Shown: positions 8,597 through 53,388 of the stretch, one piece after another
Position numbering within the stretch: position 1 is the stretch's first letter
Layout: each line of letters begins with the position of its first letter
Origin: Apophysomyces variabilis
Taxonomy: Eukaryota > Mucoromycota > Mucoromycetes > Mucorales > Mucoraceae
Direction: 5' to 3'
Length of the DNA stretch: 64,000 nt
Assembly: GCA_002749535.1 (NCBI GenBank)
Contig: MZZL01000376.1
Coordinates: 558,001-622,000 of the forward strand
Made by a program: the position numbers and the translations under genes
The notes under the pieces: generated by a model
Databases searched by the model: none
The model's input: the letters and a program-made list of their open reading frames with translations, nothing else
Told to the model about the DNA's origin: nothing

Positions 8597-11405
8597 ATGT
8601 CAGCTACACCTTTAGAAGACACGCGTATGCATGCCTTGCAGGCTGGCATGGAAAATCTCGGTCTTCAACAAGCTTATGACGATTCCGATGACGAACGACC
8701 ACTTTCAATGCAAGGGCCAGCTCCAGTCCGTTCAACTACGAGACCTGAGAAATTCTTAAAACCACCATTACAACCACCACAAGGCCCTATACCAGCTGAT
8801 ATGCAGACAACACAACAGCTCTATGACGCCTATACGAACAAAGTCTATATGGAAGGATTTATCCGCATGAAAAACGAATTGACGGTCGATGGACAGCCTT
8901 GCGATGATCAATGGTCACCATGGTATGCTGAATTATGTGGTCCGTACCTGCTTCTGTGGGATGCTCTGATTGAGAACCCCATCACACCCCAGTACATTAA
9001 TATTGCGGACTCTCGCGCACAGTTGGAAGGCAACTTGTGGTCCCTGAATGCTGTTGGCGCGAATCGGTTTCTGATTGATTCTCAGCAAAGCCCGCAATGG
9101 GTGCGCGCCATCCGGTTGTCTTGCTTTGAGGCTTCCAGAATTCATGAAATATACACCCGCAGATTTATTGCATCACGTCATATGGATCTTTTAGCTAAAC
9201 CAATGGTGAAGATGGAGGGATTCCTGCAGGTTAAGCTTGCAGGTACTACAGACTGGCAGCAGTACTGGACTGTAGTATCGGACAGACGTGACGAGAAAAA
9301 ATTATTTGGAAAAAAGTCTGTACCTTTCCGTGGTCAACTCATGTTCTACGAGTCAAAAAAAGCCAAGCAACCTCTGATGACCATGGTCAATGTTGTACAA
9401 GCCTATACAATTTATCCCGACGAACCACATCTTATAGAAACACCAACGATTATTAAGGTGGAAGGAAGCGTAAATAATGGCGAACAACAGACGACAACAA
9501 GTGCCTTACTAACAGCGTCTAGCTCGCAAGAGTTAGTTCAATGGTTAGTTGGGACATTCGATGCATTCAAACTGTATGGCCGACCTTCCAAATTGCTCGA
9601 TGATCCCGCTAACATTTCGGCGCTTAATTTCGGTGAAGGTCCCCGCTTGTTTCTTGATCCGTTCGAAGTTCAGCACGTTAACGTGCAGAACGAAACTCTA
9701 ATCGATAACAAGGCCACATTCGCAGGTATATTATTAAATAAACTGAATCAGCCACCACCACCACCAGGCCACGGGCCAGGAGGAATGGCTTACCCCGCTT
9801 CCGCGCCACAGATGCAACCAACAGGTCAAATGCAGCCTCAATATCAAGCTCCTACAGCACCTATGGGTCCTTCAGGATCAGTTGGCCAGCCACGTGCATC
9901 TGTTATGCCACCAGTAGGCAAAAAGGGAAAGGTTATCTACGCAAGCGATGACAGCGAAAACGATGATGACGAGGAGGATGAAGATGAAGACAGTGATGAT
10001 GACTCCGTTTTCAACCAAAACAAAGCAACGAAATCACCAAAAACGCCTGATCCAACCCGGCCTCTATCGAAATCCACGCATGATGCTACGGAAGAAGATC
10101 GTTCAGCATCAAAGCTTACTTTGCCACTTATCTCAAGTGATAATGAAGACTTTGCACAGAGCATCCTAGGCACGGATCAGGAAAAGAAGGAAGAAGCTGA
10201 AAAGCCCAAGTCCGTACTTTCTGGAACCGAGCATGATCAAGATAAGAAGAGCGAACAGGGAGGATCGATAGCTGAAACACGACGTCCACGGCCAAGAATT
10301 ACTCGTCCTCAAACCAGTGTTAGCGGGTCTGATAGTGAAGAAGAGGAGGAAGAAGAGGAAGAGCACGATGGCAGTGATTCAGAGGATGATAGACCTATCA
10401 ATGATGGACGATATCCACCTTCGATGAATGGATACCCACAACATCATCAGCAAATGGATGGACAAATGGACCCACGCATGATGTATGGAGATGCTTATTA
10501 CGGTGAGATGGACCCAAGAATGCAGGGGTATTACCAAGACTTTATAATGACAGAAGACGGTCCTATGATTCCGCAATTGGGGGACCACTTTGCTACTCAA
10601 AACAGTTTGCTGGATACATTCCGTCCGGATCAGCCGTCCGCTCGAGACCAAGAAGGTTGGGCCCGAGCCACTGGTCAGCCACTCATTCAACTACCTAATA
10701 AGCCATCGGCTCCAAGAGCAGGTCTTGTTGGTATGATTTCACAAATTGAGGATGTAAAGAAGGATAAAGAGGCTAATCGAGGCCGATTGCTGGAGATGGA
10801 GAAGGAACGTCTAATGGAACGGGAACGTGAACGGTATTTGATGGAGCAACGACAACAAATGATACAGAAAGTTGGTATAAGTAGGATCACTTCGATTTAT
10901 GTTACTGAATTGTCCATAGCAACAGCAACAACAACAGCAATCCATGATGGCTTCCGCATCACAGCATAACCTCAGTAGCCTTGGTAGTATGACGGCAGGC
11001 AACAGTAGCAGCATGAGCTTGAATGTTCCACCTCCACAAATGATGGATCCTCGCATGAGTATGATGCCCAATATGGGTATGATGCCTATGATGGATCCTC
11101 GCATGAGTATGATGCCCAACATGGGTATGATGCCGATGATGGATCCTCGTATGTCCATGATGCCCAACATGGGTATGATGCCTATGATGGATCCTCGCAT
11201 GTCCATGATGCCCAACATGGGAATGATGCCGATGATGATGGATCCTCGAATGTCAATGATGCAAAATGCGGGCATGTGGAATGGCGGAGGTCGACTGAGC
11301 CCAAATCCACCAGCGGCAGATGATGAGGATGACGATGTACCCCTCGGCAGCAACAAGATGGACGGGGCGCATTCGCCAACACCAGGAAGGAAAACAAGAC
11401 AATAA
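8597..11405 (+). CDS. PH-domain protein of the Caf120/Skg3 type (CCR4-NOT associated)
   Basis: Two exons, 8597-10870 and 10920-11405, give 919 residues. The donor is an unusual GTTGGT, but it is the only join that keeps phase 0 and leads into a Gln run. An N-terminal PH-type region (about residues 75-200: YMEGFIRMKNEL, then the SPWYAELCGPYLLLWDAL strand) and a second PH-like part (about 205-330, MEGFLQVKL, WQQYWTVVSD) match the fungal Caf120/Skg3 family, which in yeast associates with CCR4-NOT deadenylase. After that come a Pro/Gln-rich linker, two acidic clusters (about 455-470 and 580-595), a predicted coiled coil of Glu/Arg/Met (about 720-758), a Gln run, and a Met-rich tandem repeat. The long low-complexity C-terminus suggests a disordered, condensate-prone tail. 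I am confident in the PH assignment and moderately so in the Caf120 link. Confidence 0.8.
11040..11270 (+). repeat. Coding minisatellite, 48-bp unit, inside the PH-domain gene
   Basis: Four units of 48 bp (starting at 11040, 11088, 11136 and 11184) plus a partial fifth encode a 16-residue repeat with core MMDPRMSMMPNMGMMP. The fourth copy has one extra Met codon. Synonymous differences between units (for example ATGAGT versus ATGTCC) show that the copies are not all recent. Confidence 0.95.
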
Positions 11406-12679
11406 TATAAACCAAATCACGCACTAGAGGATTTATTGCATTATCTTTTTGACAAAGTTGCGTTTAGCAGGCTTATATTCGATAAATGTCAAAATGCACC
11501 TTTAGCTCGACTATGCTTATCTATTTAGATTGATTATTGCGTAGATGTATTTATTCAATGAAAACACAGCAAAAAGTTTTTACGACCGTAGAGAAAAGGA
11601 AAATCAAAATTGGGCACCAAATCAGGAATGGAGCAACTTAGTAACTATAAGTGTGTCGCATTTTTCAGTCCATGACGTAAAGAAGCATCATAGAGTAGAC
11701 TATGGTTTTAGCCAACGCAAACAAACGTGATGCGTTTCAGCTTCAAACATGATACAGAATTTATTTCCACTTAAATGAACCGAGGAAGCGGATGAATGCT
11801 TCCTTATCTATTATTTTGCATTCTCTTACAACATGCTTATCTATATTCATGACGTAGACAAATCCCCATGCCCTCAAGAGCCACATCATTTTAACATCGA
11901 ATACTCTACGTTTGCAACTCGCTGACTGCTGACCTGATGTTTATCTGCGATTCCCGGGTATCTCTGCGGAGCTAAAAATTCCATATCCGAAAGTGTATGA
12001 ATAGCACCAAAGACTGAAGCACTTTTGGGTTTCCTTATACATTACTTCATCCGCGCTCATTCGGATATAGACGTCTTCTTTTAAGACGGGGTCGACTTTG
12101 ACACATTCCTCGCGGTTGTTGTCAATAGTGGTGGTTGCATCGTTAAATTCTCTAGAATGGTTGTCACAGTGATAATTCAGTGGCATAGCAGACTCATTTT
12201 CAGTATGATCCTATAAAATAGCTTTTGCTGGTATGTATCACTTTAACAACAAGATCATACTTTGATACGTTGCTGTCTTTAAAAGCAAAAGGATCGCCCT
12301 GTTGTATGAGTAAAATAAAGGAACTGAAAGCATGACAAAATTAAACTTAATGCCATGATGACCCGTTTTATTTGAAGAAGGATATCGTCGAGTTTCAGAC
12401 TATATGAGAACTTTATGCATTTGAAACTCTCCCAGAAATAACTCTATATGGTGTATTACGACAGGCTGCTTTGTTTTGGGCCTATCTAGCTAATGTACCA
12501 CGTAACAGACAAAGCAAAAGTTTAGAAGCAGTAGCGTCATTGTGGCCCACACGTGGTTCGTACGTCTAAAACATGAGACAAAAAAGAAGTATATATTTTT
12601 CGATGTCAGCTCAATCTCCTTTTTAGATCGCTTTTCCTTTCTTTCTTTTTCCCTTTTCTTCTTCATTTCTGACTTAACT
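11406..12679. other. Intergenic region between the PH-domain gene and TRK-A
   Basis: This 1.3 kb gap holds the 3' flank of the PH gene and the promoter of TRK-A, with a CT-rich run at about 12618-12670 just before the TRK-A start. An 81-codon minus-strand frame at 11941-12186 has no recognisable family and no partner exon. I leave it unannotated. Confidence 0.5.
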
Positions 12680-15090
12680 ATGCTCAGATTGATACCCTTT
12701 TGGAAGTATTTACGGCGGACTTGGACTACGAAAATCCATTTTTTGGAGCTCCACTACATTTATATTGCCGTATTGATTTTGGTGTCATCTGGGCTTTATT
12801 ATTGTCAGCCTGGGACAAACTTTGCATACATTGATGCGCTTTTCATGGCAACCACGAGCGGAACAAATACCGGCATCAATACCATCAATCTCTCAGCGAT
12901 GACCTCCTGGCATGTCTCCTTGATGATGATCACGTCTTTCCTAGGGTCCCCGATCATGGTTGCTTTGATTATTGTCTTGGTGCGACGGTATTACTTTTCG
13001 AAACGCTTTGAGGATGTTTTGCAGTACAATAAGGAACGAAAAGAAAAGGAAGAGCGTAGGTGGCGGAATATTCTGGATCTTGAAGCCGCTGAAAATGCCA
13101 ACGGCCTGTCACGACCGAAACGTCTCCGTCGATGTATCTCGCTTATGTCGAGTCGCTCAATGCCCACTCCAGGGCGAAGACCAGAGACGCAACGGCGTCT
13201 ATCTGTGGATAGTGGCAGCACGGCACGGTCCGACCATATTATCGATCTGATTCACCAGTTTCATGACTACCAAATTGAGCGCGAAAAGAAAGAAAAGGAA
13301 CTGGAGGGAGAAACAATGGATGTGATACACGAATACCCAGAAAGCTCCGTTCCTGGCATTCATCAGTCGCCATTGGGCAATACCACGTCGATACCTGGCG
13401 CAGGAATAGCTTTTGCAGATAGTGTCAAAAACCAACGTGATCTCGCGCGTCAACGTCTGGAACGATCGCGACAACTGGATGACCTCCTGTTTAAAATCAC
13501 CAATGAGAGGACACCAGCGCCTCAGCCAATCGTGGGGATGGATGACGACGAAGAATACGAAAGAATCATGCGCCAGCCGATCAAAAAGAGTCAGCTGACC
13601 AGAGAACAAAAGTATCGTCTAGGAGGTACCGAGTATCGAGCGCTTGATCTGCTGGCTTGCATCGTTCCAGCCTATTACTTCGGCCTTGCGGTCGGCTGTG
13701 GATTCCTTTATCGCGCATATGTTGCTTTGTCCCCTTACTGTCAACAAGTCTTGATCACTTCCAACCCTACAGGGCCAACAAACCCATGGTTATTCTCGTT
13801 CTTTCTTAGTCTTTCCTCTTTGAATAACCTCGGGATCAGTGTTCTAGATGCAAGCATGACGCCGTTTCAAAATGCTCCTTTTCCACTGATCGTTTCCTTC
13901 CTTTTGATTTATGCAGGAAACACGGCCTTTCCGATTTTCCTCCGATTTACTATATGGACGCTCTATAAACTCACCCCCAAATCGAGACAAATGCGCCGTG
14001 AAAGCTTCCGATATCTACTGGATCATCCACGACGGTGTTTCACTACGTTATTTCCTGCGACCCGGACATGGTGGTTACTGATCATCTTGCTCTTGATAAC
14101 ACTAGTCGAGGTCCTTGCTTTTGTTGGACTGGATTACCAGCTTCCAGTGCTTGCCCACCTATCTTGGGGGTCCCGCATTTTGGATGGTATATTTCAATCG
14201 GTGTCCATCCGTAACGGTAAGGAAAATGATATAACATCCTTCCTGTAGACACAAGGTTAACTGAACAATTAGCTGGCTTCACCGTTGTTAGCTTGGCAGA
14301 CCTCAATCCTGGAACTCAGTTGGTCTATATCGTGGCCATGTACATCAGTGTCTACCCAATTGCGATCTTCATACGCCACAGTAATGTCTACCAGGTACAG
14401 TACACAGGAAAATAAACTTGCTCTTATTCGTCTTCCCTAACTGAAGACTTAGGAACGTTCGCTTGGAATTTATCGCACCACTCCTGAAGAGCAAGAACCC
14501 GCCCGCTTCAAATCAGAGGACCTAAAGTATCCTCCCTTTGTGAAGTTACGGCGGCAAACAACGATCAGTAGCATCATGACGACTTCCAAAAGGTTCCTCA
14601 GAGGTCCTGATTTTTTCGTCGTTCAACAGATTCAGCGACAATTGACGAGTGACATGTGTTGGGTTATTGTTGGTGTTTTCCTAATATGTGTTATTGAAGC
14701 AGAAGCAATTATGGCACCAGCACCTATTACTATAGCTAGTGTCATTTACGAATGTGTATCAGCTTTTGCCAACGCTGGTGGATCCCTAGGCTATCCCGGC
14801 ACAACAACTTCGCAATGTGCCCAATATCACACGTTAAGCAAAGTTGTCTTGATTATACTTATGTATAGAGGACGCCACAGAGGTATGTGAACATAAGCGG
14901 ATTCTGATCTCTTCCTATTTACTCACCCCTGTTAGATCTGCCGGCTGCTATTGACCGAGCCGTTCTTTTGCCATCCGAACAATTAGAAGAACAAGAAGAA
15001 AAAGACGAAATGTATCGTCGTCAGAATGCATCCTATATGGACATGCAGGATCCACCAAAACTGTTTTACAGTCGAACTCGTACGATTTAG
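12680..15090 (+). CDS. TRK/HKT-family potassium transporter, copy A
   Basis: Plasma-membrane K+ uptake protein of the fungal Trk superfamily. Four exons: 12680-14216, 14273-14394, 14453-14882 and 14936-15090; phases fit (1, 0, 1), giving about 747 residues. The first pore loop follows FAYIDALFMATTSGTNTGIN and contains the conserved filter Gly. The last pore loop is YECVSAFANAGGSLGYPG. A long cytoplasmic loop (about residues 110-310), rich in Arg, Glu and Ser, separates the first membrane pair from the rest, as in yeast Trk1. The frame is open upstream to 12542, but ATG 12680 is preferred because copy B starts at the equivalent place. A second copy (B) lies about 35 kb away in the opposite orientation. 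Specificity for K+ over Na+ is inferred from the family. Confidence 0.93.
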
Positions 15091-29248: not shown

Positions 29249-32200
29249 ATGGACAAGTTCAAGACAGTTACCAAAGAGGCAAAGGATACAGCGCATAACA
29301 TAGACAAAAATCAAGGGGCTAGACACTATATGCCGCTGAACTCAGCACGCAGACGTTCATCATCCTCACCAAACATATATAAACTCCCTTTAGATTGGAA
29401 TAAAGGGGTTTTGCATGGTGGAGAAGCATCTGATGAATCTCCGTTTGAGTTGTTTGACAACAGACAATTTCAAAAACTGATCGATGTCTCGAGGCGCTCA
29501 GAAATAGTAGGGATTACCAGAGACACATCCTTCAAATCCGTTTTCAGCCCGACCGTCTCTGTCGCACCAGGATTTGCGAAAGCAGCAGAGAACACAACTA
29601 ACAAAGCGAAACGCGATCAAAAGTCCATACAACACAACAAACACGAAAGGATGCTGCTTGTTTCATATTGGGAAGTGAGTAACAGATGATGAAAAAGAAA
29701 CAGAACGATAAGTTAAGCGCTCATAGATGAGATTTAAACGCAGGAATATAAAGCCAACTGCTACATTCACAAAAGCTGTCCGTGAAGCACTCGACAGCTC
29801 CGGAAAAGACAGGTCAAAACAATACGAAGCGCTGCAATTGGTTTTCCAAAGATATGGCTTCTATTACCCATCTACGATCATTTTCGGTATGCAACGCTAC
29901 CATTTTGCGCCGCATTAACATATCTCGACCAAGGGGGCAAACTTAGTTTGAACGGTAAAGACAGATCAGAGCTATGGGAAGGAAACGAGGGGACAACCAA
30001 GAAAGGAAGCACCAAATGGGGTGAATACATATCCAAGGAAAAACAAAGATTCATTATTGAAGCCTTGGAACAGGACCTGCAACATGTTGTAGCGGTTGGT
30101 ATGATATTTGTCCAATTCATTAAAGACCTACCCTAAATAATGATTCGTTAGGTGGCGATGAGGCAAAATTGCAATCTGGTCTGAAGGAATGGATATCAAC
30201 ACTGGAAACCGGCCTAGTCGTTGTGCTCCGCGCTAGTTTTAGACCAACGTACCATTTATTGGATAAAAGCCTGATACACCGAGTCTTGGACGTATATGAG
30301 ATGTCAAAACGGAGTGATTGGGGCCATTGTATTCATGGGGTTCATGCTGACCTGAACTCAGGTGAAAAGCAAGCTATCGAGATAGCCAACAGCGCCGGTA
30401 TATGCTTTTACCCCAAGGAGAACTTAAAAGTGGCAAATGAAAGTTTTAATTGGAAGGAAAACGTGGCAGCCTGGACTGATTTAAAGTTCTTTCGCGAGCA
30501 CTCCATCGATCAACAGTTACTCGACACCGACTGGGTAAATTACACTCATTTACCAGGAACTCAAGGTTACAGTTTTTTTGCGTGCAATGCTCTTCGGCAC
30601 TCTTTAGTAACAGAAACAAAGGAAATCCAAGAAGTATACATACCTAGAAGACATGTTGGTTATCATTTTGAGGGTTTGCAAGCGTCCATGCTTCTAACCT
30701 AAATGCTGAATGACAGATATCCCTTCTGCCCGATGCCGTCAAACCTACCAAAGAATTTGAAAATGCCATTACTCGTGCATTACTGCCTGATGGCGACGAT
30801 GCACGATTTGCAAAGTTGCAAGACGTTTTTCGAACATACGGTTATTACTGGCCCCATCTGATCATCACCGGTAATAGTTTCGAACTGGATGTTTTCAATG
30901 TCTGATATGGTTAAAGGCGGGAAAATTAGTTATACAGCAGATAGCATCCTGTATGGCTCTCCAAGCAAAATTATTGAAAAAGTGGTAAAGAACGACCTGC
31001 TACGGGATATCTTTGGTAAGAGAAAAATGGATGACAATGGCTAGATTTTCAATTCTACGTACTACAGGTGGTAAACCAAGTCTTCTGCTCGTTCGTAGCC
31101 CTGATATTGATGGATGGCTTGCGAGTACGACAGATGACCAAGTCCCTATTATTATAGCAGATGTTAAACCATTGTATGAGCTGCTCCCACCCCAGATAAG
31201 TTCGGAAATTCGACGACTATACACCGTAGCCTACAGTCAGCGAAAAGCCTTAATCCCATCTAGCATTGTCAAACATGCTGACACAGAAAATGCTTTGATT
31301 GCTCTATCAAATACTCAGGTGAAGGCTTGTGTGACGAAGGGCATTTATTATGATGGATCATTGGCAGCAGAAGACGCGGTCGAAATCGTTAAAGATAGCG
31401 ACATTAACACGTTGATGGTGTCTTTGAAATATCAAGAAAAACCACAAATAGAATGGAAGACTCGGAAAACAGGGCTCTCAGCTAGCATTCATGCGCACGC
31501 TTTCCTTCCAGATCACTTTCTGAACGAAGTGGAACCACTGGGCGGCTTCAGGCAGATCGCAATAGAAGAATACATAGAAACAAGCGGCTTAAGGGGACAG
31601 CAAACAATTCGAGAAGAAACCTATCTCGCGATGTATGTGGCATATAAAGAGGTTAGTAAACTTTACATAAAAACTTTTTATGTTTGCGTTATTACTGTGT
31701 TTGTGGATCCAGATTTTCTTGAAATGGAGGACAAAGAAAAAAGAATGCGCAGATAGGGCACGATACTTCAACAAGGGGTATCGCTAGTTGATTAGCAGAT
31801 TTAAACTATAGCAAAGCAAAAATTACAATGGTTTTTCTCGATAACACCGGGAATTACTACAGGCTTAACTAACGCCGCGAAATAGCTGGTTTTGCGCTCT
31901 GGTCATATCAAAGCAACCGATAACTTGACCGCGACGGTTGCAAAGGCACTAGATATGAAAGATGAACTAGAAAGATATCACGAATTGAGGAAAGTGTTTC
32001 GCCGCTTTGGCTATTATTATCCGACTTCTATCCTGCTTGGTAAGAGAATATGGAGTTTGCAGGCTTTGTTCATAGATGCTTTCTTAGGTGGACGAATTAC
32101 ACTTGATCATGTACCACCAAAGTTCTCAAGCATAACATCTGAAACTGATGCGATTGAGGAAATAAGCAGATTACTTAGCTCTCGTCGCGAGAGATTTGCC

Positions 32201-35200
32201 GCAATAGGTCAGAAATAACGAAGATCATATTGATGGTTTCACCCTTGTATTAACGACTAAGTGTATTTATAGGAGGCGATACTATTGTCGGCAGTTACCA
32301 GAATTGGATTGATTCGATTGAAGATGATCAAGCACGTATTCAGTTTAAATCAATGAGGCCAATGTATGAAATACTGGAAGCGGATCAACGCGGACAAGTA
32401 CAGCGATTGTTTGATAAATATGCCTACCGTTACGATGAAATTCCCAAGCTACCAAAAGCGCTACATCTGGATGGGGTAGAGGCAGAGGACGAAGCATTTG
32501 AGTTTGCGCAAAATACGATCCTCTCCAGAATGATCATGCTTCGAGACCTATCCAGGCATCCGGGCATAGACCATACCAAGCGACACGAAATAAGCTCGAA
32601 AGAATTAGAGAAACTGTCCCTGTTAGATCTTGACTCGGAGCTTCCTAAAGATATTTATTTCAACATGGGGGCGCAAGGAGCATATAAGGAACGAGATACT
32701 AGCTTTGATCGACAGGATGTCAACGTCATAAGATTCTACGAATTGGTTTATGTGGTTTACAAAGAAGTAATATGTCGATGGGCAAACGCAGAAAAGAAAA
32801 CTCAAATTTTCCCCTTAAATACAGCTATGTCTTCCAGATGATTTTGTACAGCCTACTGTGAGATTCAAGGAAGCTATATGCAGAGCGTTGCGGGTGGGAA
32901 GTATGGACAATGATACTTACAACGCGCTACAAGACGTTTTTCAGCGATTTGGTTATTTTTATCCGACCAGGATACAATTCGGTATGATCATCCCTTTGGA
33001 TATATTCTTCATTTCTTATGCTATGGTCCAGGAGGTAGACTTATTCTTCAAAGGCCAGCCAATAATCAGGAAGATCAGCAAACAGCATCTATTTGTAACA
33101 TTAAGAAGCGTTACGAAGATTATTTGACACTATGTCAAGTGGGAGAGATTGACGGAGATTTGCAGGCGGATGAAACCAGCCAAATGCCTGCAAGGTTCGA
33201 TGATAGCGTATCGCTCACTGAATATCGACATGCATCGTCCTGGCAGGTCACCACTACAATAATTGAGAATTCCATTGCTCGGAGCGAAAATATGAAAGCC
33301 CTTGGTAAACAAATCTCCATCAAAAGAGGAAACGTTCTGAAATAATGTCTTCTGCTCAAAAGGTGGAGATTCTGTCTGCTTGCTATGGAATGATCTTAAA
33401 AGTTGGATAAGCTCCGTGGAATTAAATCAACAACTCATCAGATGCAGTGGTATACGTCCGCTCTATGATCTACTGGACACCGATGAGCGTGAGAAAATAC
33501 AACAGATATACAAGAATTTAGCCTTATCGGACGATCGAATTCGCTATAACCACCCGCTGAAGTTGACAAGCTTTGACAATTTAGTTAACGAAGGACAGGA
33601 CATGGCTGGGGACGATGAAGATGTATCTGTACGTAACAAAACAATCGTTGCCTTTTCGCATGGCTAACCTTCTGCCCACAGAAGGAATCATTATATGAAA
33701 GCTTGAGAAACGCCTCATTCCATAATATGACAAGCGCAATCGAATTCATTCACAGTGCTTGCGCGGAGAGTGGGTTTCTCATCACAGAAGAACATACGGC
33801 AGACGATGTAAAATATCTTTAACAGTAATCAGCATTATATGATTCGTACTAACTTGTACAATAGATTGTTACCGTCCGTTGCTCATATAGTCATCAGCAG
33901 AACAATGCATCGTCCTCGTCAAGGAATGAACAAAGCTCTAACGATTTCTGTCCTTGGAAGGTCCTTTTGCTGAGAAATGACGATGCAATATGGAAGTTTG
34001 AGAAGATAGGCGTTACAGATCAATATAAACATAATCATGAACTAAACAAAGATGTCGAGGGCTATTATCAGCCAGCAAGTCGAGAGAGCCAGACGATTTC
34101 TTTTGAGGATAATGACAGGTCAACTCTATCCGCTACGAAGGCACCAAATGAACGGCAATCTATTATTCTCAGCATTGAATCTCTGAAGCAGCAAAATACC
34201 AGATCCCTCGCAGTTGCGCAATACATTCGCTACAATGATATGCTCCATTTAAGACTTATCAACTCGAAAACGGCAGCCAGATTAAGCATACTGAATGACA
34301 CAACTTTGAAGAATCTGATCAATATTGCCAAGTTGAAACATGTAGAGAGGCTACTAAGAAAATTGCTGGAAACGTATGTTTCTGCAAGTCAATGTTTAAA
34401 AACGCTTGGATACCGCAAAGAACTGATAGACAGCGTCAAAAATTCAGACTTGGACTGCATATGGTTAGCAGACAGCCTTAGGACTATAATTTGCTAACTG
34501 AAGGTATAGGAAATTGGTGCCTTATCCACTCAATAACAGCTATGATGAGAATGACCCAGGAAGGACAGAGAGGGATAAGGAAGAAAGAAAAGGTACTGTT
34601 TACTTTTGGTACTTAAGATACATAATAATTGATTGTACACATGGCTATCGTTCCATTTATTCGTAATAGGAAGAGTCATAGGCTCCTTTGATTATATCAG
34701 GAATAATGATGTCGTACTTTTCGAGAGTCAGGCAGTTTTTGATGGCTCCAAGAAACTTTATTTAAGTGCCACGGCTGATGGACCCAGTTGCACAATATCT
34801 GAAAGTCCTGGCGAAATCCAATGTAGGCAAGCTGGATGGCAAGTTATTCGGAATATACACAACGCGATCAATCCGCAACGAACGTGGGTCAAACTGTCAG
34901 CGGAATTACAGATAGAACTTTTTTCCGCAAGTTTCGGGAAGGGAGACGATGATAGAGACATTTTTTACCAAACCATGGACCCATATATCCGCTTGCTTCA
35001 AAGGGACGAGGATGAAGATGACGACGACCGCTATAACGAAAAAGAAATGGAACAAGCAAAACAGAATAATGAAAAAGAGGAAGGAAAACGCGCGATTCTG
35101 CGAAAGCAAGGCCTTGATAATGAGCATCAGATCCTCTACATGGATGCTATGACACAAAGCAGAATAAAAAGTCTCCGACTGCAAGGTCAGAAAGGAAAAC

Positions 35201-35910
35201 GTGACGCTTACTATACACTTGCGAAGCTGCTGTGGAACATGGAACAGTACCAAGAGTCCCTGGCTATGTACGAAGAAGCTGCCAAGTTATCAATGCCGGA
35301 AGCATACTGTGAACTGGGAAGCATCTATCACAGTGGCTTTTCTAGCGATCATTATGTTATCGAACCCAATCTGGACGCAGCGTTTTTCTACTATTCTATT
35401 GGTGGTATGCTCGGTAGCTATCTAGCTGCAATGAAGGCTGCCGAGTGTTTTAAAAATGGACGCAATGGAAGCCTCCGAATAGATTACGATAAAGCGCGGC
35501 AATGGTATGTACTTGCCAATACTCGTTTTCCTGGTTATTCAGTCAATGGACCTTTCAATCCATCGCCTGCCCTATTGGAAACTGCCCGAATCGACCACGC
35601 TTGGGCAAAAGCGACAAGCAATTTCATGGAAGCTGAAGAGCATCATCGCAACGCTTTCGGTGCATTTCAGACACTGGCTGAAGCAAAACCATACGCCAAA
35701 TTTATGGTCGCCATGTATCATTTATACGGATGGGGTATTCAAAAACCCGATCCAAATCTTGGCTTCAGCATGCTACTTGATCTTGTCGAATCAGGTCTTA
35801 AAAAAGTTCCACTTGCAATAGCCAAATGCTACGAAGAAGGAGTCGGTGTAGAACGCAATCCTGTCAAGGCCGCAGCATATCGAGAACTTGCTAACCCGAT
35901 GCCAAAATAG
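29249..35910 (+). CDS. Giant multi-module MACPF-like / Sel1-repeat protein, member A (intact)
   Basis: Seventeen exons with fully consistent phases: 29249-29674, 29727-29886, 29934-30098, 30152-30654, 30717-30870, 30917-31015, 31068-31651, 31886-32039, 32088-32207, 32273-32766, 32825-32981, 33032-33304, 33363-33628, 33682-33807, 33865-34463, 34510-34592 and 34670-35910; 1,867 residues. Four tandem modules (about residues 46-308, 311-590, 597-850 and 855-1150) each show a Tyr/Phe-Gly-x-Tyr-Tyr-Pro-x4-LeuGly-Gly signature, then a second Gly-Gly, a WI/WL segment and RPLYDLLD-like block. This order parallels MACPF domains (signature YGTH.x.GG, then GG..W..S.., P..LL) and resembles a large Glomeromycotina family often fused to Sel1 repeats (from memory). 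A beta-rich linker (1190-1450), an acidic tract (about 1570-1600) and Sel1 repeats (about 1637-1867, LYGWGIQKPDPNLGFSML and IAKCYEEGVGVE) follow. No signal peptide is seen, so action may be intracellular. Whether it forms pores is unknown; no target can be inferred. Confidence 0.82.
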
Positions 35911-42680: not shown

Positions 42681-45600
42681 ATGGATAAGTATAACACAAC
42701 AATGGAGGATGTGACAGACGAAGCGAATGCCCCGTCTGTTACTCCTGATATCCAGGAGAATCAGGATATTGACACTGGTATATCATCAGAGCCAGACCAA
42801 GACTTTCCGCAGCGTACACTTGACATGAGCATGCTCCCTTCCGGGTGGGATAGTGGCATTTTCTATAACGGAGGGCAGGCTGATGTATCTTCATTCGAAC
42901 TTGCGAATGATCAGGACCTTCCTCATTTGATTGCCGTTTTTCGAGATCCAAAAATACTAGGTGCCACTACAGACATGTCATTGAAAGGCACTTTCCGTTT
43001 AGCGGTTGCTGTCGCACCAGGATTCGCTGCGGCCGCGGAAGAAGTATACGATGAGATGAATGAGGATGCCGAATCCATGTCTGACACCAAGTACAGAGCG
43101 CTGGTACTTGTATCAAGTGGAGAGGTAAGCAGCGAGCTTCAGAAGTGGATACAATGCGTTCATATATAACTAAATCCGAAATAGATGAAACTGGGACGAA
43201 AGGATATCAAATTAGCTCCTGCTTTTACCAAAGCTGTCCAGGAAGCACTACGTGAACCTGGAGAAGATAAATCAAACCAATATGAGGCGTTGCGCGGCGT
43301 TTTTCGAAAGTATGGGTTTTACTATCCCACAAAGATCGCTTTTGGTACGCAAAACTTGCTGTAGCTTTATTTCTCACACGACTAATATACTAAACTATAG
43401 GCGGGAAGCTTTATGTTTGAAGGTGATACGTACTCATGGTTGAGTGACGCCGGCAAAGAGGACAGAGAAAAGTGTGATAGGCGATTCCCGTTCTCCGATA
43501 TCGATATTGATAAAAGGATTTCGGAGAAAGAGCAAGACAGAATCACGCAGCTAGCGGAACAGAACTTGCAACATATAGTAGCAGATGGTAAGAAGGTTAG
43601 ATATATTTTCTATCCACTTAATATTAGACTATAATCAGGTGGCGACGAGTCAAAGATATCATGTGGAGTGAAGGAATGGATTTCAACCATTGCAAAGAAT
43701 CCAAAGATCGCACTCCGTGGAAAGTTTAGACCACTATATGATCTTTTAGATAACTCCACGAGACGCAAGGTTCTCAATATCTGCGAGAGTTCAAAACAAA
43801 AGTCTTGGGTAGACTCCTTGAATGGTGTTCACGTTAATATGGAAGCAGTTAAGGAACCGGCCATCAAAATAGCTACTGGTGCAGATATATATTATTATCC
43901 TACGGGCAATTTGCCAATTGTGAACAAAAAAAATTTTCGATCGTTTTGGGAATTGGGCGGCCTACTTAACGTTTCGCAACCGATCACAATTCCGATGCAA
44001 AGTAGATCAACAATTAACTAAAGCAGACTGGGCAGACGAGGTGCTATTGCCAGGATTACAAGGATATTGTTTCTTTGCCTGTAAAGCGCTTGGAAACATC
44101 ATGACGGAAGAAAGATGGAATCGTAAAGAAGAGCTTATAATCCGACGTCATGTAAGATTTTTCAAATATTGTGATAACGAGCACTTATCTAGATGAGTTA
44201 TCATAGATATTTCTTTTGCCTGGTGCTATCAAAGCCACTGCAGAATTTGAAAAAGCTATATTTAATGCGCTACAAAGATGCACTGAGGAAGAGAAGTTTA
44301 TGGAACTGGAAAAAGTATTTCACATGTACGGATATTACTATCCGCAATGGGTCACACTTGGTAAAGTAACGATAATCAAATGTTACGCACTTAACGCGGT
44401 ATAAAGGCGGCAAGATTACCTACCAAAGCTTTGTGTACAGTTATAATCCCTTAATGCATCGCATACAAAGTATTTTGCGCGAGGGATCAAGCTGGCAAGC
44501 ATCTGGTACGACAGAATTGTTTACAGGATGCAAGTACCTCATAGAAAAGAGCACTTTTCGATGTAGGGGGCGATATAAGTCTTCTTTTCAATGACATTCC
44601 TGATATCACTGGATGGCTAGAAAGTACGACGCATAACCAAATTCTTGTGTCAGTGGAAGATGTCCGACCGATGTATGATCTTTTCAATGAGGAAATAAGT
44701 GCGCAAATTCGACAGCTATACACAAAAGCATATTATCAGTACAGATCACGCATTTCGTCTTCTCTTGATGGCAAGCTCAACGAGGAAACAGCGCTGGTCT
44801 CTCTAACAAGAGGAGAGATAAAAATTGGTTACTGGAAAGGAATTCACTTTGACGGATCCCTCGCACCAGAAGATGCAATTGAACTGAAGAACGATATTGA
44901 TATCACTAAACTGCTCGTACCAGTGAATGTTACGGGACGCCCCGAAATCGAATACCAGGATCGCGTCACAGAGTTCTCGATTAATAAGAGTACGCATGCC
45001 TTTCTTCCGGACGGCTTCTTAAGTAGAATGCAACTGAACGGATTTAATACAGCCGCAATAGAGTATCACATAGAAACAGGTAAAGTGAGAGAGGAACAGA
45101 AGGTAAATACGAGGTATCTCGCGATGTACGTAATTTACAAAAAGGTGAGTTACGCCTGCTGATAATATACGACTTCTGCTCCATCAAATCATAGCTATGT
45201 TTGAGCATACAATGCTGTAGTGGGTATCAAAGGCAGTGGAGAAGATCCAAATAAGCACAAAGTTATATGTTGCTGCAACTTTCTCCAATCAGATGGCTCG
45301 ATAGCACCTTCCCTTTATCTTTTGGATTCTTAAGATTCGATATCTAACAGGCTCTATTATAGCTGGACTTGGATACGAAGTATATTAAAGCAACAGAAGC
45401 CTTGCAAAATGCAGTTGCAGAAGCACTAGCTCAGGATACCGACATGAAGAAGTACTATCAGTTAAAGAAAATATTTCATCGCTTTGGATATTACTATCCG
45501 ACTTGCATTTTGCTTGGTAGATGGATGTGATAATGGGTTCCGGTGGACTCATAGATTTCTTGTCTAGGTGGCCGACTTATCGTCGATGCAACATCATCCA

Positions 45601-48600
45601 ATTTGCCTGACGTTCTGTCCACAGAAGATACAGCTAAGGCTATCGAAACGATCCTCGATTCTCAGCAATATGCAAAAGAGATTATTGGTTTGAAACAAAG
45701 GAAGAATAGTGAATAGGCTTGTAGTTGACACTCGTGGATTCTATAGGAGGTACCACTGTCCTATGCGGTCGTCAAAACTGGGTCGAGTCCGTCTGTAGTA
45801 ACCAAACACGCATTCAATTTGCATCAATGAAGCCACTGTACGACATTCTACAAACGGAACAGCGAATGCAAATACAGCGCTTGTTCGATGAAAATACACT
45901 CCATGACAAGGAAAGCCCAAGAATACCACCAGGCATGCACTTTGACGGAATAGAGGCGGAATATCAAGCTATTCAACCTGTCAAAGACGACATAAGCTCC
46001 AGGATGATTATGCTTCGAGATTTCTTTGACCAGCCTTATGTAGAGCACACAAAACAATACGGGCGAGATCTACAAGAAGTCCACAGCAAGGCGACAATAG
46101 ATGTTGATGCGGAGTTGGAATTCGCCAGAAACATGTATTTTAATTTGGGTGCACAAGCTGCATGGAAAGAGCGAAAAGCTACCTCTAATCATCGCCCTGG
46201 CAATACTGAACGGGCCTATGACGTGGTTTATGTGATATACAAAGAAGTATATAATCTGACGCTATGACCAAGACAAACAGGGAACTGATTTGATCATATG
46301 TAGCTATTTCTGCCAGATTACCTAATACAGCCAACCTCTCAATTTAAGGAAGCCATCAGTAAAGCCTTGGAAGTGGGGAATCTTGATCATGATACCTACT
46401 ACGCCTTGCAAAATGTTTTTCAACGGTTTGGTTATTATTACTCAACAAGAATACAAATTGGTATGACGTTTCTGACTTCAAAAAGGGCAGCATTTTCAAA
46501 TTATATTTAGGAGGTAGAATAATTCTTCCATGCCCGTCAAACGACCAAGACGAAATACAAGCAAACCAGGCATTCGGTATTAAAGAGCGTTTGGAAAATT
46601 ATATACGGATGTGTGAAACAGGAGAACTCAACGAGATGTCGCACGAGGAAAAAAATAAGCAACGGAATATACCATCCAAAGACGATGAATTGGGGACAGT
46701 TATTGAACAATACAATCAAGAGTTAGCCTGCCGTTATGCAAACGGTGAACTTGCAAAGTCCATTGCCAAAACGAAGGCATTAAGCGCTGTTGGTAAGCTA
46801 AATGTGCATTGGCATGGATCTATACATAGTAACGCGAGCTAAGGTGGCGATGGTGTTTTTCTACTGTGGAATGATCTCAATACGTGGATACAGTCTGTGC
46901 AATCCAGTCAACTCATAATTAGGCGCAAAGATCTACGGCCTCTTTATCATGTGTTGGACAAGTGGCAACGCCAAAAAGTGCGGCAAACATACAAAAACAT
47001 CGTCCTTGCAGATGACCGTATCCGTTATGATTGTCCATTGCTATTGACAGCCTACGAACAACCGGACAGCGAAGAAATTGAGATGGTTATGCCAGATCGT
47101 CATGGACTTGTAAATGTGCACTTCAGAATTAGATTTGGCTCCACTAATCTAACTTAATAGGAAAAAGCATTGTATCGGCAGTTGTTGCAGCGAAAGTTCG
47201 ACGATGTTAATGAAGCAATCGAATTTTGTCGCAGTACTTGCAAGAATGCGGGATTCTCTATTTCAAAAGAATATGTCGACGATGATGTAAGAAATCATTG
47301 CGGCATGTATTGCCAGCATACTGAGTTTTACCGTAGAATTTTTATATACATTGCTCACAATGTGAGCAACAGTCATTGACTGAAGGTGACTCTGACCGAA
47401 TCGCGACAGGATGGACTATTGTGTTATCATGCGAAGCCTGCCCTGGAGAATGGTGCTTTGAATCGCCCTGGAGCAAGAAGGATATCATGCATAGCCACAC
47501 ATTAAGAGATAAAAAGGGAGAAAATAGGGTTACCCCACCAGGTATGCAAGAACAATTTAAATCTCGGAAAACGAACTTAAGCTAGTATCTTCTATGCAGC
47601 TATCCAATACTCAATGATTCTCGAAATCAAGCATACGGCGTTAATAACGAATGGAGAATGCAAAACTGCGCAACACGTTCACTATGATGATCTTATCTAT
47701 CTAAGATTGATCCATTCAGAAAACACAGCATTGATGTCCCTATTAAATGATGAACTGTTGTTGAAGGTCATGAAGGTTGGCGATTTGGAAAAGCTGGCGG
47801 ATACTATAAATGATCTAAAAGATACATACATCTCCGCAAGCGACTGCCTGGAAGGACTCGCAGACAAAGAAAATGAGGAAATCACTGTTCGAGATTCAGA
47901 TTCAGACTATTTATGGTTCGATATTGTAAAGATTTTCATATTGTTAACTAAAGATGTAGGAAGATAGTACGGTGCCCGTCAGATAACGAGAAACTAGAGA
48001 ACAGAACGGTTGGGGCAGATTTTCACTCGAGGAAAACAGAAGGTTTGCATTTAAATTGAAGAAACGGGAAAAGATCGCTATTCACAGTACCGAGTTCACA
48101 GCTTGCTATTTGAGCTATCAAGACTGCGTCAGAAGCAATGATATTATTCTTTTTGAAAGCCAAGCAGCTTTGGAAGGCTCCAAAAGGCTTTACCTAGGGC
48201 TTAATGGGAATAGACTCAGCTGTTTTATATCGGAAAGTCCAACTAGCGATGCATGGAAACAAGCAAGATGGCATGTTATCCGAAATATATACGATGGAGT
48301 GATCAGGCGACGTGACTGGTTTCGGGTATCGTCAGAATTGGATATAGAGCTTAATGTTTCGGACGTTGAACATAAGAAAATTCATGCAACGTACGTCGAT
48401 GATATCCTAGAATTAAGCATTGACATGGTTGGAGTTGGCGAAAATCAGATGGAACACAATAACGACGTCAAGAATATGTAAGATAGACAGGACAAATCAG
48501 GAATAGAGGCATCTTATCCATTGACAGTCAGGGAGATGAAGACACCAGGTCGTGCAACGTAGATCGGAGCACAGAGAGAGAGATTGAGATACTACATGCT

Positions 48601-49347
48601 AGGGCTGACGATGGAGACGGTGAGGCATGTTACGAGCTTGCAGTGCACCTATGGGACACAGGAGAGTATCAAAAAGCGTTGGATATGTATGAAAGGGCTG
48701 CACAGCTGTGGGACGCCAATGCATGTTATGCATTAGGAAACCTTTATCATTCGGGATTCTCTTCTGACCATTTCACCATTCCTCAAAACTCACAACTGGC
48801 ATATATGTATTACTCCGTTGGTAGTACATCCCCGACGGTTTGGGAGTCCATAATCTATCTGAACATGATAAAGGTTGCTCAATATTATGAAAAAGGATGC
48901 AACAAACTCCCGGACATTCATTACGATAAGGCTCGGCAGTGGTACCTGACAGCCAACTACAGCCTTGATCCGGATGACCAGGGTAATAGCGATAGATCAC
49001 CAGCATTATTAGCAATAGGAAAGCTTGAACACTCTTGGGCTATGGCAACAAGCGACCCACTGGAAGCCAACGAGCATAGTCAGAATGCTTTCAATATGTT
49101 TCACCGATGCATGGAAGCGCAACCGTACGCCAAATTTATGGTTGCAATGTACCATCTGTATGGTTGGGGTATCCGGCAGCCAGATCCAGGTCTCGCATTT
49201 AACATGCTGCTTAGCCTTGTTGAATCAGGTCTTAAAGAAGTTCCACTTGCAATAGCCAAATGCTACGAAGAAGGTGCCGGTGTAGAACGTGATCCTGTCA
49301 AGGCCGCAGCATATCGGGAAATGGCTAATCAAGTGCCTAAAGAGTAG
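42681..49347 (+). pseudogene. Giant multi-module MACPF-like / Sel1 protein, member B (two +1 frame breaks)
   Basis: Paralogue of A with the same architecture. Nineteen exons: 42681-43124, 43185-43344, 43401-43587, 43639-44151, 44207-44360, 44407-44505, 44567-45144, 45363-45516, 45568-45687, 45747-46246, 46304-46460, 46511-46792, 46844-47109, 47161-47286, 47337-47541, 47600-47915, 47960-48042, 48102-48477 and 48549-49347. Phases fit throughout except 43401-43587 and 43639-44151, which each carry one base too many: near 43405-43415, and at an A8 run at about 43926-43933 where A has none. These stop translation inside module 1. Modules 2-4, the linker (DYLW split by an intron) and Sel1 repeats are open. 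It is either a young pseudogene or two assembly errors; the second, at a homopolymer, fits an error better. Two introns, after 47541 and after 48477, are absent from A. I list it as a pseudogene, but about 1,840 residues would be expected if both breaks are artefacts. Confidence 0.75.
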
Positions 49348-49695: not shown

Positions 49696-52266
49696 TTAAA
49701 GGGTACTAGATCGATTATAGAACATAACTGTAGGTCCATTCATATTAGAAACAGAGGTATTGCGTCGACGGAGCATATTGTCTTCTTCTTCGCGTTGCTC
49801 CAATTGTTCGGAAGGCAAAAGCACTGCCCGATCGATAGCAGCCGGTAGACCTATACAGTAAACAAAAATTGAATGGTATGAGAAAAAGAGTCTACATGTC
49901 AAGTCACTGTTCTTTAATTACCTCGATGGCGACCACGGTACATCAGGGCAATCAAAACGAGTTTACTCAAGGTGCGATAGGCTCCAGCTTGGGAAGTAGA
50001 TGTTCCCGGAAAGCCGGTCGATGCGCCGACATTAGCGAAGGCCGAGACACATTCATAGATCACCGTTGACATGGTGATTGCGGAAGGAGACATGATTTCT
50101 TCGGCTTCGATGACACTGATGAGGAAAATGCCGACAATAACCCAACAAATATCACTGGTCAGTTGGCGTTGGATTTGGGTAATCACAAAGAAGTCTGGAC
50201 CACGCAAGACACGTTTGGAAGTTGTCACGACACTGCTGATCGTCGGATGTCGGCGTAACTTAATAAATGGTGCTGGTCCATTCAGTTCCTGCTCGCTGAA
50301 ACGAACAGGCTCCTCATCATCTTGACCACGGAATATACCAAGGGAACGTTCCTGAAAAGAAAAAAATTAGAGTTTAGCTATTTGTTATGCTTAAATGTTA
50401 TGCTTCATTATTTTGCATTTCTGTTGCTTTTTTACCTGATAGACGTTACTGTTACGCATCGAGATGGCCACCGGATAAACGCTGATGTACATAGCCACTA
50501 TATACACCAATTGCGTACCTGGATTAATATCGGCCAAACCAACCACACTAAAGCCAGCTAAACGAAGTCATGATGCATGTGAGTACACATTATTCTTTGT
50601 CACGGGAAAAAAAACACTCGGCATATGGCTTACCGTTTCGAGTAGCAACGGACTGGAAAATACCATCCAAGACGCGAGATGGCCAAGGAAGTTGGTTGAT
50701 AACAGGTAACCAATAATTTAAAGACAGGAAGGCGATGACTTCCACTAATGTGATCATGATCAAGACGATCAAGAGCCACCATGTCTTAGTAGCCGGAAAG
50801 AGAGTGGTGAAACACCGACGAGGATGATCAAGTAAGTAACGAAACGTTTCGCGCCGCATGACTCTCGATTTAGGCGTGAGTTTATACAGGACCCAGATGA
50901 TGAAACGCAGCAAGATCGCAAAGGCCGTGTTCCCGGCCAAAATCAGGATAATAGCTACGATCAGGGGAAACGGTGTGTTCTGGAATGGGGTCATACTGGC
51001 ATCGAGAACGCTCATACCGAGGTTGTTCATCGCCGATACGCTAAGGAACATGGAGAAAAGCCAAGGGTTGGTGGGTTCGGGGTTGGAGGTGGCAAGCACC
51101 TCTTGACAGTACGGAGAGACGGCGACAAAGATCCGATAGATAAAACCGCAACCAAAGATAAAGCCCAAGTAATAACACGCCACAATTCGTGCCAACATGT
51201 CCAACGCACGGTACTCTGCCCCGCCTATGCGGTAACGCTGTTCTCGAGTAAGTTGACTTTTCTCGATCGGTTGACGCATAATGTACTCGTAATCTTGGTC
51301 ATCCTCATCATCGGGCAGGCCGGCTGTCTGATCGTCATCTCCTCCAGTTTCTTTCGCAATTTTTTGCAGCAGTTCATCCAGTCGCCGTGAACGTTCCAGA
51401 CGTTGGCGCGCCATTTCACGTTGACGTTCGATATTATCTGCAAAAGCGATTCCTTGGCCTACTGCCGTATTGCCGTCGGTTGTGCCACTCAGGGATGTGG
51501 CGGTTGTCACACGGCGGAGATCGTTGTCAGCGTTGCTGTCGGCTTTCTCAGCAACATCGCACGGGTGAGCCGACCTAGAAAATTGCCTTTGAAGTTCTAG
51601 CGATTCCTGCTGCTGCGGAGCTGGTAACTTGACGTCGTACTCTTGCTGTTTGCTCTGCAAATCTTTCTGGTATTCTCTGAACTGAGTAATCAGACTGTAG
51701 ATATCGTTGGTGCGGGTTGCATGCGTATCAAAGGATTGGCGACGGCTTCGCATTTTTTGGTCGGTATTGCCTTGCACAGGTGTTGAATGAGTGGACATGA
51801 AGGATAAACGACGGCGGATCGGTGGGCCTATATCACTTCCTGTTCTTTTCTGACCTGTCTCGATATCGATCTTTCTCCGTCGTTTATGTTGTTCTCTGAG
51901 TTGCATTGCCTTATTGTATAATAAGATATCCTCGAAACGTTTTGAGAAGTAATAGCGTCGGACCATGACAACGAAAAAGGAAATGATGATGTGTGAACAG
52001 AAGAACGAATTGAGCATGAGAAGAGTGAGCTGCCAATTGCTCAGATCAGACATATTGATTGTGTTCAGTCCGGTATTGGTGACCCCTGTGGTTGCCATGA
52101 AGAGGACATCAATATAAGCAAAGTTTGTCCCGGGTTCACAGTAATAAAGGGCCGAACTGATAAGGATCATGAAAGCAATGTAGGAATAGTGTAGCTCCAG
52201 GAAGTGAACCTTTGTTTCCCAGAAGTGACATACACGCTCCCACAACGCTTTATGCAAACGCACCAT
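49696..52266 (-). CDS. TRK/HKT-family potassium transporter, copy B
   Basis: Four exons, 50634-52266, 50436-50557, 49922-50351 and 49696-49850, give 779 residues. Exons 2-4 are 122, 430 and 155 bp, exactly as in TRK-A at 12680-15090, and all three introns have the same phase. The first pore loop follows FAYIDVLFMATTGVTNTGLN and the last is YECVSAFANVGASTGFPG; the loop between them is again long and charged. The filter positions differ slightly from A (TGVTNTG versus TSGTNTG), and GASTGF replaces GGSLGY, so the two copies may differ in affinity or selectivity. The conserved C-terminus LPAAIDRAVLLPSEQLE is shared. Start ATG 52266 was chosen because it opens the conserved WETKVHFLELHY region. 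Confidence 0.94.
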
Positions 52267-53388
52267 GGATATGTATAAAAAGAAAAGGGGGAGGATACTA
52301 TGGAGACGAATTCAACAATGAAAATGGAGATGGAAGGTAAGTGAAAAGAATGGAGAGAAGAGAGAGAAAAATAAAAAGAAATGGAAAAACTGAGAGAGGA
52401 CTGGTTTCCCAGCGACAACAACACACACTCCTATATCGGTCTTTCAAACCCAAGAACAAATCGAACACTGGGTTTAGATTACGGGTTGAGGCATTTTCAT
52501 GAATAAGGCAAAGAAAGAACGGGTGGTCAGAAATTGCCATTTTATGAACTTGCATCGGCGCTTGTATCCAGCTAAACCCATTTTCCCTCGCCCCTTTATG
52601 GTCTAGATTAGTCAAACAAAAAGATATGGCCTATACCTTTATACCCGTGAACGGGAAAACGATTATAACATTCTTGAAACTTAACCCTCTTACACCGACA
52701 AAAAAAAAGAGATAAACAACCTTTCGATTCCTCCCCCGATATCATCAACCTACATAAAACACGAGGATAATTCAACTGAGTCGCCCATGTCACTCTCCAG
52801 AAATAGAAACTAAAAAAAGAAAAAAAGTTTTTATCTGTGTTGCTACAGATAACTATGCAGTAAGAAAAATGAATGTCATAGTGATCTAGTTCCTTTCTAA
52901 ATGATAATGGAAGAAATTTTTTTTGCATTTGTTTTTTGTTACTGACTAATAGGTTCATATAAAGAAAGAGATGCTTTCTATTTTCTGTCGGTGCGTTTAC
53001 CGCCCTATGCACCCAATCACCCGGTTCGTGTAACTGATGGGTTGTTTTTTTTTTTCAGCAAAGCATTAGGTTGGAGCTTTTCAGACGGCCCCCTTGCGTA
53101 CGCAGACTCGTTTGTAACCATGGCATGGACGTGTTTTGTACCACACTATATGTCAGCTGTCAGACAAGCAAAAAAAAAACGCCCTTTTCCCCAGCATAAT
53201 GCGTGCACAGAGGTAACATGACATGCTAAACATACACTAATAAGGGGAAAAAAAAAAAGGAAACGAAATACACATATACACATAGGCCCTCGGTCTCTTT
53301 TTCTCTTCTGTTTCAAAGATTTATTAACAGGGTATAAACTTTGTCTTTTTCTTTGTTACTCTAATCCATTTATTTTTCTTTTTCTGTC
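52267..53388. other. Intergenic region between TRK-B and the PPR gene
   Basis: Promoter side of TRK-B on the left, 3' flank of the PPR gene on the right. It has several A/T homopolymers. No supported gene. Confidence 0.5.

What the first reader, a model, noticed from the sequence alone, without database searches (positions are those of the whole stretch)
29249..35910. Giant protein with four tandem MACPF-like modules and C-terminal Sel1 repeats
Each module has an aromatic-Gly-x-Tyr-Tyr-Pro-x4-Leu-Gly-Gly signature, then a second Gly-Gly with a following Trp-Ile segment and a RPLYDLLD-like block. The order of these elements parallels MACPF pore-forming domains, and the half-domain in exon 1 (GIxYxG.., then LLVSYWE) recurs at each module start. 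I know of single-domain Glomeromycotina relatives, but four covalently linked copies plus Sel1 repeats would be a pre-assembled partial ring, perhaps an immunity or self/non-self effector. That use is inference.
Basis: partly seen in the sequence, partly recalled or inferred. Interest (0 to 1): 0.88.

Follow-up and report, generated by a model that had tools for sequence, protein, structure and literature searches.

The report
Fungal protein with four perforin modules
A mould, most likely of the genus Apophysomyces, carries a family of giant proteins in which three or four copies of the perforin-type fold sit in one chain; this gene is a four-copy member, which is unusual because proteins of this type usually carry one copy and assemble from many separate molecules.

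The parts
29249..35910 (+). Whole gene A: 17 exons (29249-29674, 29727-29886, 29934-30098, 30152-30654, 30717-30870, 30917-31015, 31068-31651, 31886-32039, 32088-32207, 32273-32766, 32825-32981, 33032-33304, 33363-33628, 33682-33807, 33865-34463, 34510-34592, 34670-35910), 1867 aa
   Evidence: 84.5% identity to P0001 (A. ossiformis) over 1731 alignment columns, residues 143-1867
29384..30315 (+). MACPF module 1 (residues 46-305), spliced; its joint to module 2 was found at 3 of 20 multi-module loci; groups with a single-module gene on contig C108; TMH2 interval 53 aa
30316..31240 (+). MACPF module 2 (residues 306-560), class II; TMH2 interval 31 aa
31313..32430 (+). MACPF module 3 (residues 585-841), class III; TMH2 interval 38 aa
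32440..33529 (+). MACPF module 4 (residues 845-1152), class IV; TMH2 interval 89 aa, polar
   Evidence: the same class in a modelled relative matches pleurotolysin B
33688..34044 (+). FAR1-like (C-C-H-H) zinc-binding domain, residues 1188-1287 (Cys 1233, Cys 1256, His 1283, His 1285)
   Evidence: gene A's own segment has no FAR1 match in Pfam
34210..34854 (+). Beta-rich-looking stretch with two YxRxxD / LYL elements (residues 1343-1516); no Pfam match; resemblance to MIR/trefoil tails is recalled, not tested
35182..35910 (+). C-terminal Sel1/TPR-like repeats (residues 1626-1867)
   Evidence: Sel1 PF08238, E 1.4e-9, two stretches
42681..49347 (+). Gene B: second copy with the module 1-2 joint, the later module joints and a Sel1-type tail; its frame appears interrupted in two places in the region of modules 1 and 2 (degraded copy or assembly error; judged by eye). 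Described only

Best explanation
Shown: gene A is an intact-looking gene, most likely of Apophysomyces, for a 1867-residue protein with four MACPF modules, a FAR1-like zinc domain, a beta-rich-looking stretch and Sel1 repeats. It belongs to a family of at least 20 loci; all database relatives found are from this genus. The tree suggests an old three-module core to which module 1 was later fused from a single-module MACPF gene. Inferred: the protein stays inside the cell (no signal peptide seen, zinc-type domain, Sel1 adaptor repeats; one relative begins with a myristoylation-like MGQQQS). Its modules keep the MACPF sheet and the GGXnW hinge, but modules 2 and 3 seem to have lost a full second membrane hairpin. 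It therefore works as a covalently linked MACPF arc that recognises, scaffolds, caps or blocks assemblies of the single-module MACPF paralogues in the same genome (or incoming MACPF proteins), with the Sel1 tail recruiting partners, rather than as a pore former on its own. The identity part is near certain (about 0.97); the confidence below is for the mechanism.
For: Module homology and phases. Orthologue identity 86-90% in the modules. Family size: the exon joining classes II and III hits 20 loci, the one joining III and IV the same 20; the module 1-2 joint was found at 3. In the tree modules group by position (class II 100/100, III 100/100, IV 99/97), and module 1 groups with the C108 gene (100/98), whose protein also begins MDKF. 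TMH2 interval: class II 31 in 10 of 13 rows (others 33, 40, 48), class III 38-48 in 15 rows, class IV 70-97 in 6 rows (4 more dropped, see full report), module 1 53 in 2 rows; against 64 in pleurotolysin B and 60 in three single-module genes cut by eye. In the P0014 model the loops on either side of the sheet differ: 60 and 22 residues (II), 74 and 34 (III), 49 and 82 (IV), counted by me. A review says pore formers have TMHs of equal size and that astrotactin, with one 30 residues shorter, would not match it in a barrel (PMC5483515, passages). No strongly hydrophobic N-terminus in 7 of 7 proteins examined (highest 11-residue hydropathy 1.44; gene A -0.13).
Against: The GGXnW tryptophan, which the same review reports as kept in pore-forming and absent in developmental MACPFs, is present in all four modules. 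The first loop of classes II and III is mostly under pLDDT 50, so the loop comparison is rough, and pleurotolysin B was not measured the same way. My amphipathicity score is mixed: none or low in modules 1-3 (none, 0.53, 0.32), but module 4 (0.80) and P0005 class IV (0.76) lie near pleurotolysin B (0.86) and above one single-module gene (0.71), so hairpin loss in module 4 is not shown. Co-assembly with single-module paralogues has no direct evidence. Nothing is known about expression or location.
Confidence: 0.42

Rival explanations
1. Pre-assembled pore arc: the four linked modules are a ready-made part of a ring, so that few copies close a pore, used in immunity, allorecognition or attack.
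For: MACPF identity and GGXnW hinge kept in all modules; the same idea is printed for Theileria/Babesia perforin-like proteins with more than one MACPF domain (PMC7522308, section 5); module 4 has a long TMH2 interval (89 residues) with an amphipathic 10-mer.
Against: TMH2 intervals of 31 and 38 residues in modules 2 and 3; no signal peptide by hydropathy; unmatched loops in the model.
Confidence: 0.25
2. MACPF fold reused with no link to membranes or to other MACPF proteins: a general intracellular (perhaps nuclear or nucleic-acid-linked) adaptor, with the FAR1-like zinc domain as the active part and the modules as spacers.
For: FAR1-like domain comparable by profile to five FAR1 segments elsewhere in the genome (hhalign probability 97, E 5.2e-11); astrotactins and BRINPs are MACPF proteins not observed to form a pore (PMC5483515, passages).
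Against: The FAR1-like domain is less conserved than the modules between orthologues (79% against 86-90%); P0002 seems to lack it (by eye); a spacer would not need the conserved hinge.
Confidence: 0.27
3. Gene-model artefact or pseudogene: the joined modules come from neighbouring single-module genes or a decayed locus.
For: No transcript was available; splicing was chosen by eye; the neighbouring gene B looks interrupted in two places.
Against: One open frame over 17 exons with repeating phases; GenBank predictions in A. ossiformis and isolates BC1015, BC1021 and BC1034 join the same modules; single exons encode the end of one module and the start of the next at 20 loci.
Confidence: 0.03

Closest known systems
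Pleurotolysin B (Pleurotus ostreatus MACPF; PDB 4ov8, 4oej, 4v2t)
   Different: One MACPF domain, mostly 13-mers; here four in one chain, short TMH2 interval in two modules, no signal peptide seen, zinc-type domain and Sel1 repeats.
Fungal MACPF-like family, Pfam PF22693 (MACPF_1)
   Same: Whole protein scores 62.3 bits against a cut-off of 27.5, three stretches. Genes showing one module in the stretch held lie in the same genome.
   Different: Tandem copies in one chain with FAR1-like and Sel1 parts. Single-domain Glomeromycotina relatives are recalled; none was returned by my three protein searches.
Theileria and Babesia perforin-like proteins with more than one MACPF domain
   Same: The one printed case I found of several MACPF domains predicted in one chain; one Babesia protein is marked with three (PMC7522308, passages and section 5).
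   Different: Apicomplexa, an unrelated lineage; the highest number in the passages I saw is three, and they name no Sel1 or zinc domain. Not compared by sequence here.
Astrotactin-2 / BRINP (MACPF proteins not observed to form a pore)
   Different: They lack the GGXnW tryptophan, which all four modules here keep; vertebrate proteins.
FAR1 DNA-binding domain, Pfam PF03101
   Same: C-C-H-H pattern with CxW and HNH; 2 of 12 tail segments match, best E 7.7e-4; profile comparison with five FAR1 segments of the genome, probability 97.
   Different: Gene A's own segment has no FAR1 match in Pfam; joined to MACPF modules. FAR1's usual link to transposases is recalled.

Membership tests
MACPF superfamily (PF01823/PF22693) | Profile match of the whole protein above curated cut-off | tested here: met
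   MACPF_1 62.3 bits (cut-off 27.5), MACPF 59.9 bits (cut-off 21.5). Cut out alone, modules 3 and 4 pass the MACPF cut-off; modules 1 and 2 pass neither, though MACPF_1 is their best hit.
MACPF superfamily (PF01823/PF22693) | Signature Y(F)-G-T(S)-H-x7-G-G (wording from PMC5483515) | tested here: inconclusive
   Four copies of [FY]G-[FY]-Y-[YFW]-x6-GG: glycines, aromatic and spacing kept, T/S-H replaced by aromatics. Pleurotolysin B itself reads YGHVF.
MACPF superfamily (PF01823/PF22693) | Four-stranded bent sheet fold | tested here: met
Pore-forming MACPF (perforin/pleurotolysin type) | GG-Xn-W hinge tryptophan | tested here: met
   4 of 4 modules (alignment); criterion from PMC5483515.
Pore-forming MACPF (perforin/pleurotolysin type) | Two membrane hairpins (TMH1, TMH2) of equal size | tested here: not met
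   By length only: TMH2 interval 31 and 38 residues in modules 2 and 3 against 64 in pleurotolysin B; model loops 60/22, 74/34, 49/82 (low confidence in the first loop). Therefore not filed as a pore former.
Pore-forming MACPF (perforin/pleurotolysin type) | Oligomeric ring and membrane lysis | not testable with these tools
   Needs protein.
Secreted effector/toxin | N-terminal signal peptide | tested here: not met
   Highest 11-residue hydropathy in the first 60 residues of gene A is -0.13; 0.18 to 1.44 in six relatives (simple hydropathy, no dedicated predictor). Unconventional secretion not excluded.
Sel1 repeat proteins (PF08238) | Sel1 repeats above cut-off | tested here: met
   38.6 bits, cut-off 30.7, two stretches.
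FAR1 DNA-binding domain (PF03101) | Profile match and zinc ligands | tested here: inconclusive
   2 of 12 segments, best E 7.7e-4; other zinc families also ring weakly (BIR 2 of 12 at 0.014, zf-C3HC 1 at 0.0084). hhalign 97% against 5 of the 10 FAR1 hits of the genome. Second Cys and both His invariant in 12 of 12, first Cys gapped in 2.

The most novel reading that the evidence does not exclude
Apophysomyces evolved covalent MACPF arcs: a genus-specific family of at least 20 loci of intracellular receptors or guards in which three or four MACPF modules act as a built-in template that nucleates (or poisons) rings of single-module MACPF proteins, with Sel1/zinc tails sensing the trigger. This would be a fungal self/non-self or intracellular defence system using the perforin fold inside the cell.
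Probability: 0.2. Interest if true: 0.9.

Novelty: new variant of a known kind. Interest (0 to 1): 0.62.

Why it matters
MACPF proteins are usually single-domain subunits that must find each other (general knowledge). A natural chain of three or four modules, in many paralogues, with modules of full and reduced TMH2 length side by side in one genome, lets one test directly which parts of the fold serve packing and which serve membrane insertion. It also marks a large gene family, unstudied as far as my searches of one open-access library show, in a mould genus with human-pathogenic species. Tandem copies, strong divergence and adaptor repeats are often seen in recognition systems; that comparison is inference.

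Tried and rejected
Rejected: another fold. The 13-module profile gave 18 solved-structure sequences at E up to 10, all MACPF (for GNIP1Aa and Mpf2Ba1 the MACPF label is partly recalled). Single-class and single-module searches added only weak unrelated rows (pyrophosphatase, colicin E9, Gag, Chantal; E 0.17 or worse), the two-module profile a lysozyme at 1.5. Rejected: chance repeats. Rejected: bacterial or viral origin (16 introns; 8 of 10 neighbouring ORFs scanned have Pfam matches, among them UTP20, PPR and a fungal PH domain).

Led nowhere: Pfam on the FAR1-like and beta-rich segments of gene A alone; PDB search with the FAR1-like profile (0 hits). Distant relatives: three protein searches returned 20 different proteins, 19 of them Apophysomyces and one (P0017) an unrelated Sel1 protein. 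Each scored only the 7999-8000 candidates sharing most words, so absence elsewhere is not shown.

Literature (one open-access library, no preprints): no paper with MACPF and Mucorales or MACPF and Sel1. The tandem/two/multiple/four MACPF phrases gave 3 papers, one on several MACPF domains in one chain. MACPF with fungal and Rhizophagus gave 3, none titled on this. One search was too loose to count (1,402 papers at two of five terms; none of the 15 listed holds MACPF). Apophysomyces with perforin gave 10 papers, 5 listed, none titled on this. Fungal-MACPF phrases gave 16, 12 listed, none titled on Mucorales.

A second structure (P0020, class IV plus tail) and a plain Foldseek search were wanted and never accepted.

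Full report
What is there. The reading frame from 29249 to 35910 can be spliced into 17 exons with GT-AG introns and one stop at the end, giving 1867 residues. I drafted it by eye, then moved three junctions: the start of exon 2 by comparison with the neighbouring gene B, and the exon 13/14 and 15/16 joints by comparison with GenBank protein P0001. From residue 143 on, gene A is 84.5% identical to P0001 over 1731 columns. P0001 as deposited has no counterpart of exon 1, of ten residues in the fourth signature, or of sixteen residues in a linker, which look like gene-model differences. The organism is therefore most likely Apophysomyces; no other test of its identity was made.

The four modules. 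A module profile finds four full-length copies. The six pairs score 113-191 against shuffle maxima of 51-67. Exon start phases run 0, 1, 1 four times over from exon 2 to exon 13. The modules arose by duplication of intron-bearing units.

The family. Of 20 proteins returned by three searches, 19 come from A. ossiformis or isolates BC1015, BC1021, BC1034, and one (P0017) is an unrelated Sel1 protein. Four database proteins (P0002, P0009, P0014, P0019) show exactly three complete modules and nothing more; several others are split or cut, perhaps by gene-model errors. In the window's own genome (38.7 Mb, 126 contigs) the exon joining classes II and III is found at 20 loci, and the exon joining III and IV at the same 20. 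The joint of module 1 to module 2 was found at 3 of these: gene A, gene B and C29 near 56.7 kb. Signature-exon hits also lie at 14 places outside the 20 loci: six on C75, two each on C91, C95 and C94 near 1.62 Mb, one each on C108 and C30. I read only 3-4 kb around some of these, so that each carries a single module is not proven (on C91, minus strand, pieces of another module follow). The tool calls such counts lower bounds. Four of the 20 loci, A and B included, lie on contig C59 between 587 and 710 kb, all on the + strand.

Origin of the fourth module. In a 44-row tree (40 modules, four single-module rows; partial modules were dropped except P0001's first) modules group by position, not by gene: class II 100/100, class III 100/100, class IV 99/97; module 1 of gene A and P0001 groups with the C108 gene at 100/98 (the C108 row contains some intron-derived residues, and the C75 row is a long branch). 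The C108 protein starts MDKFNT, gene A MDKFKT, gene B MDKYNT. The simplest account: a three-module gene existed before the family spread, and a C108-like gene was later fused to the front of an ancestor of A and B.

What the rest is. After module 4 comes a segment with the pattern GF...C...CxW...W.F.K...HNH. Twelve such segments align with the second Cys, Trp and both His invariant. Pfam FAR1 matches 2 of 12 (best 7.7e-4; not gene A); BIR, zf-C3HC and other families also ring weakly. A genome search with FAR1 gave 10 hits, two over the cut-off; the tenth (E 0.17) lies inside a MACPF locus on C87 just past its last module. Profile comparison with five of those FAR1 segments, two of them 95% identical, gives probability 97, E 5.2e-11. 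I call it FAR1-like. A beta-rich-looking stretch follows with no Pfam match, then Sel1 repeats.

How it may work. In pore-forming MACPFs two helical clusters turn into hairpins of equal size; in pleurotolysin B a conserved Gly-Gly beside a helix-turn-helix packs on TMH2 (PMC4318580, passages; PMC5483515, passages). I measured the interval between the signature GG and the second GG: 64 in pleurotolysin B, 60 in three of four single-module rows cut by eye, 53 in module 1 (2 rows), 31 in 10 of 13 class II rows (others 33, 40, 48), 38-48 in 15 class III rows, 70-97 in six class IV rows. Four further class IV rows (17, 17, 17, 58) were dropped because an internal GG ended the match early. So modules 2 and 3 look short of a hairpin, and module 4 has a long polar insert, modelled in the relative largely at pLDDT under 50. 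Against this, the hinge tryptophan that the review ties to pore formers is kept in all four modules, and a crude amphipathicity score does not separate class IV from pleurotolysin B. No signal peptide is seen by hydropathy in 7 of 7 N-termini. P0002 starts MGQQQS, which resembles a myristoylation site (recalled motif, not tested). Between orthologues the modules are 86-90% identical (module 1 from residue 143 only), the Sel1 tail 87% and the beta-rich stretch 89%, while three linkers are 69-79%, one linker (1517-1625) 84%, the FAR1-like domain 79% and the module 4 insert 75%. This fits constraint on all four modules, but no codon-level test was possible. I conclude that the protein is most likely an intracellular linked arc used for packing and recognition with other MACPF proteins, not an autonomous pore. 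This is inference at about 0.42.

What is known. The one printed precedent found for several MACPF domains predicted in a chain is Theileria/Babesia, with one Babesia protein marked as having three (PMC7522308, passages and section 5 read), where pore formation with fewer monomers is suggested. MACPF proteins not observed to form a pore, such as astrotactins, are reviewed in PMC5483515 (passages). My searches found nothing on such proteins in Mucorales (listings only, limits given under Tried and rejected).

Noticed in passing
42681-49347 (+): Second four-module MACPF/Sel1 gene (gene B), separated from gene A by ORFs that include an MBOAT-type and a threonine synthase gene; its frame looks interrupted in two places, so a decayed copy or assembly errors.
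   Followed up: partly
12506-14245 (+) and 50593-52311 (-): Two TrkH-type cation transporter ORFs in opposite orientation flank the region holding genes A and B (TrkH E 3.2e-45 and 4.8e-46).
   Followed up: no
G000 C59:587-710 kb and C29:46-62 kb: Clusters of multi-module MACPF genes on the same strand, suggesting local tandem duplication.
   Followed up: partly
L014 (contig C108, 23214-26441, - strand): MACPF gene with one module in the stretch held, a TMH2 interval of about 60 residues and, by eye, a beta-rich tail without Sel1; closest relative of gene A's module 1.
   Followed up: partly
P0002 (A. ossiformis EC973_000946): A three-module relative begins MGQQQS, a myristoylation-like start, and appears by eye to lack the FAR1-like domain.
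   Followed up: no
10920-11402 (+): Tandem repeats of a unit like DPRMSMMPNMGMMPM in an ORF that overlaps the end of a fungal PH-domain ORF.
   Followed up: no
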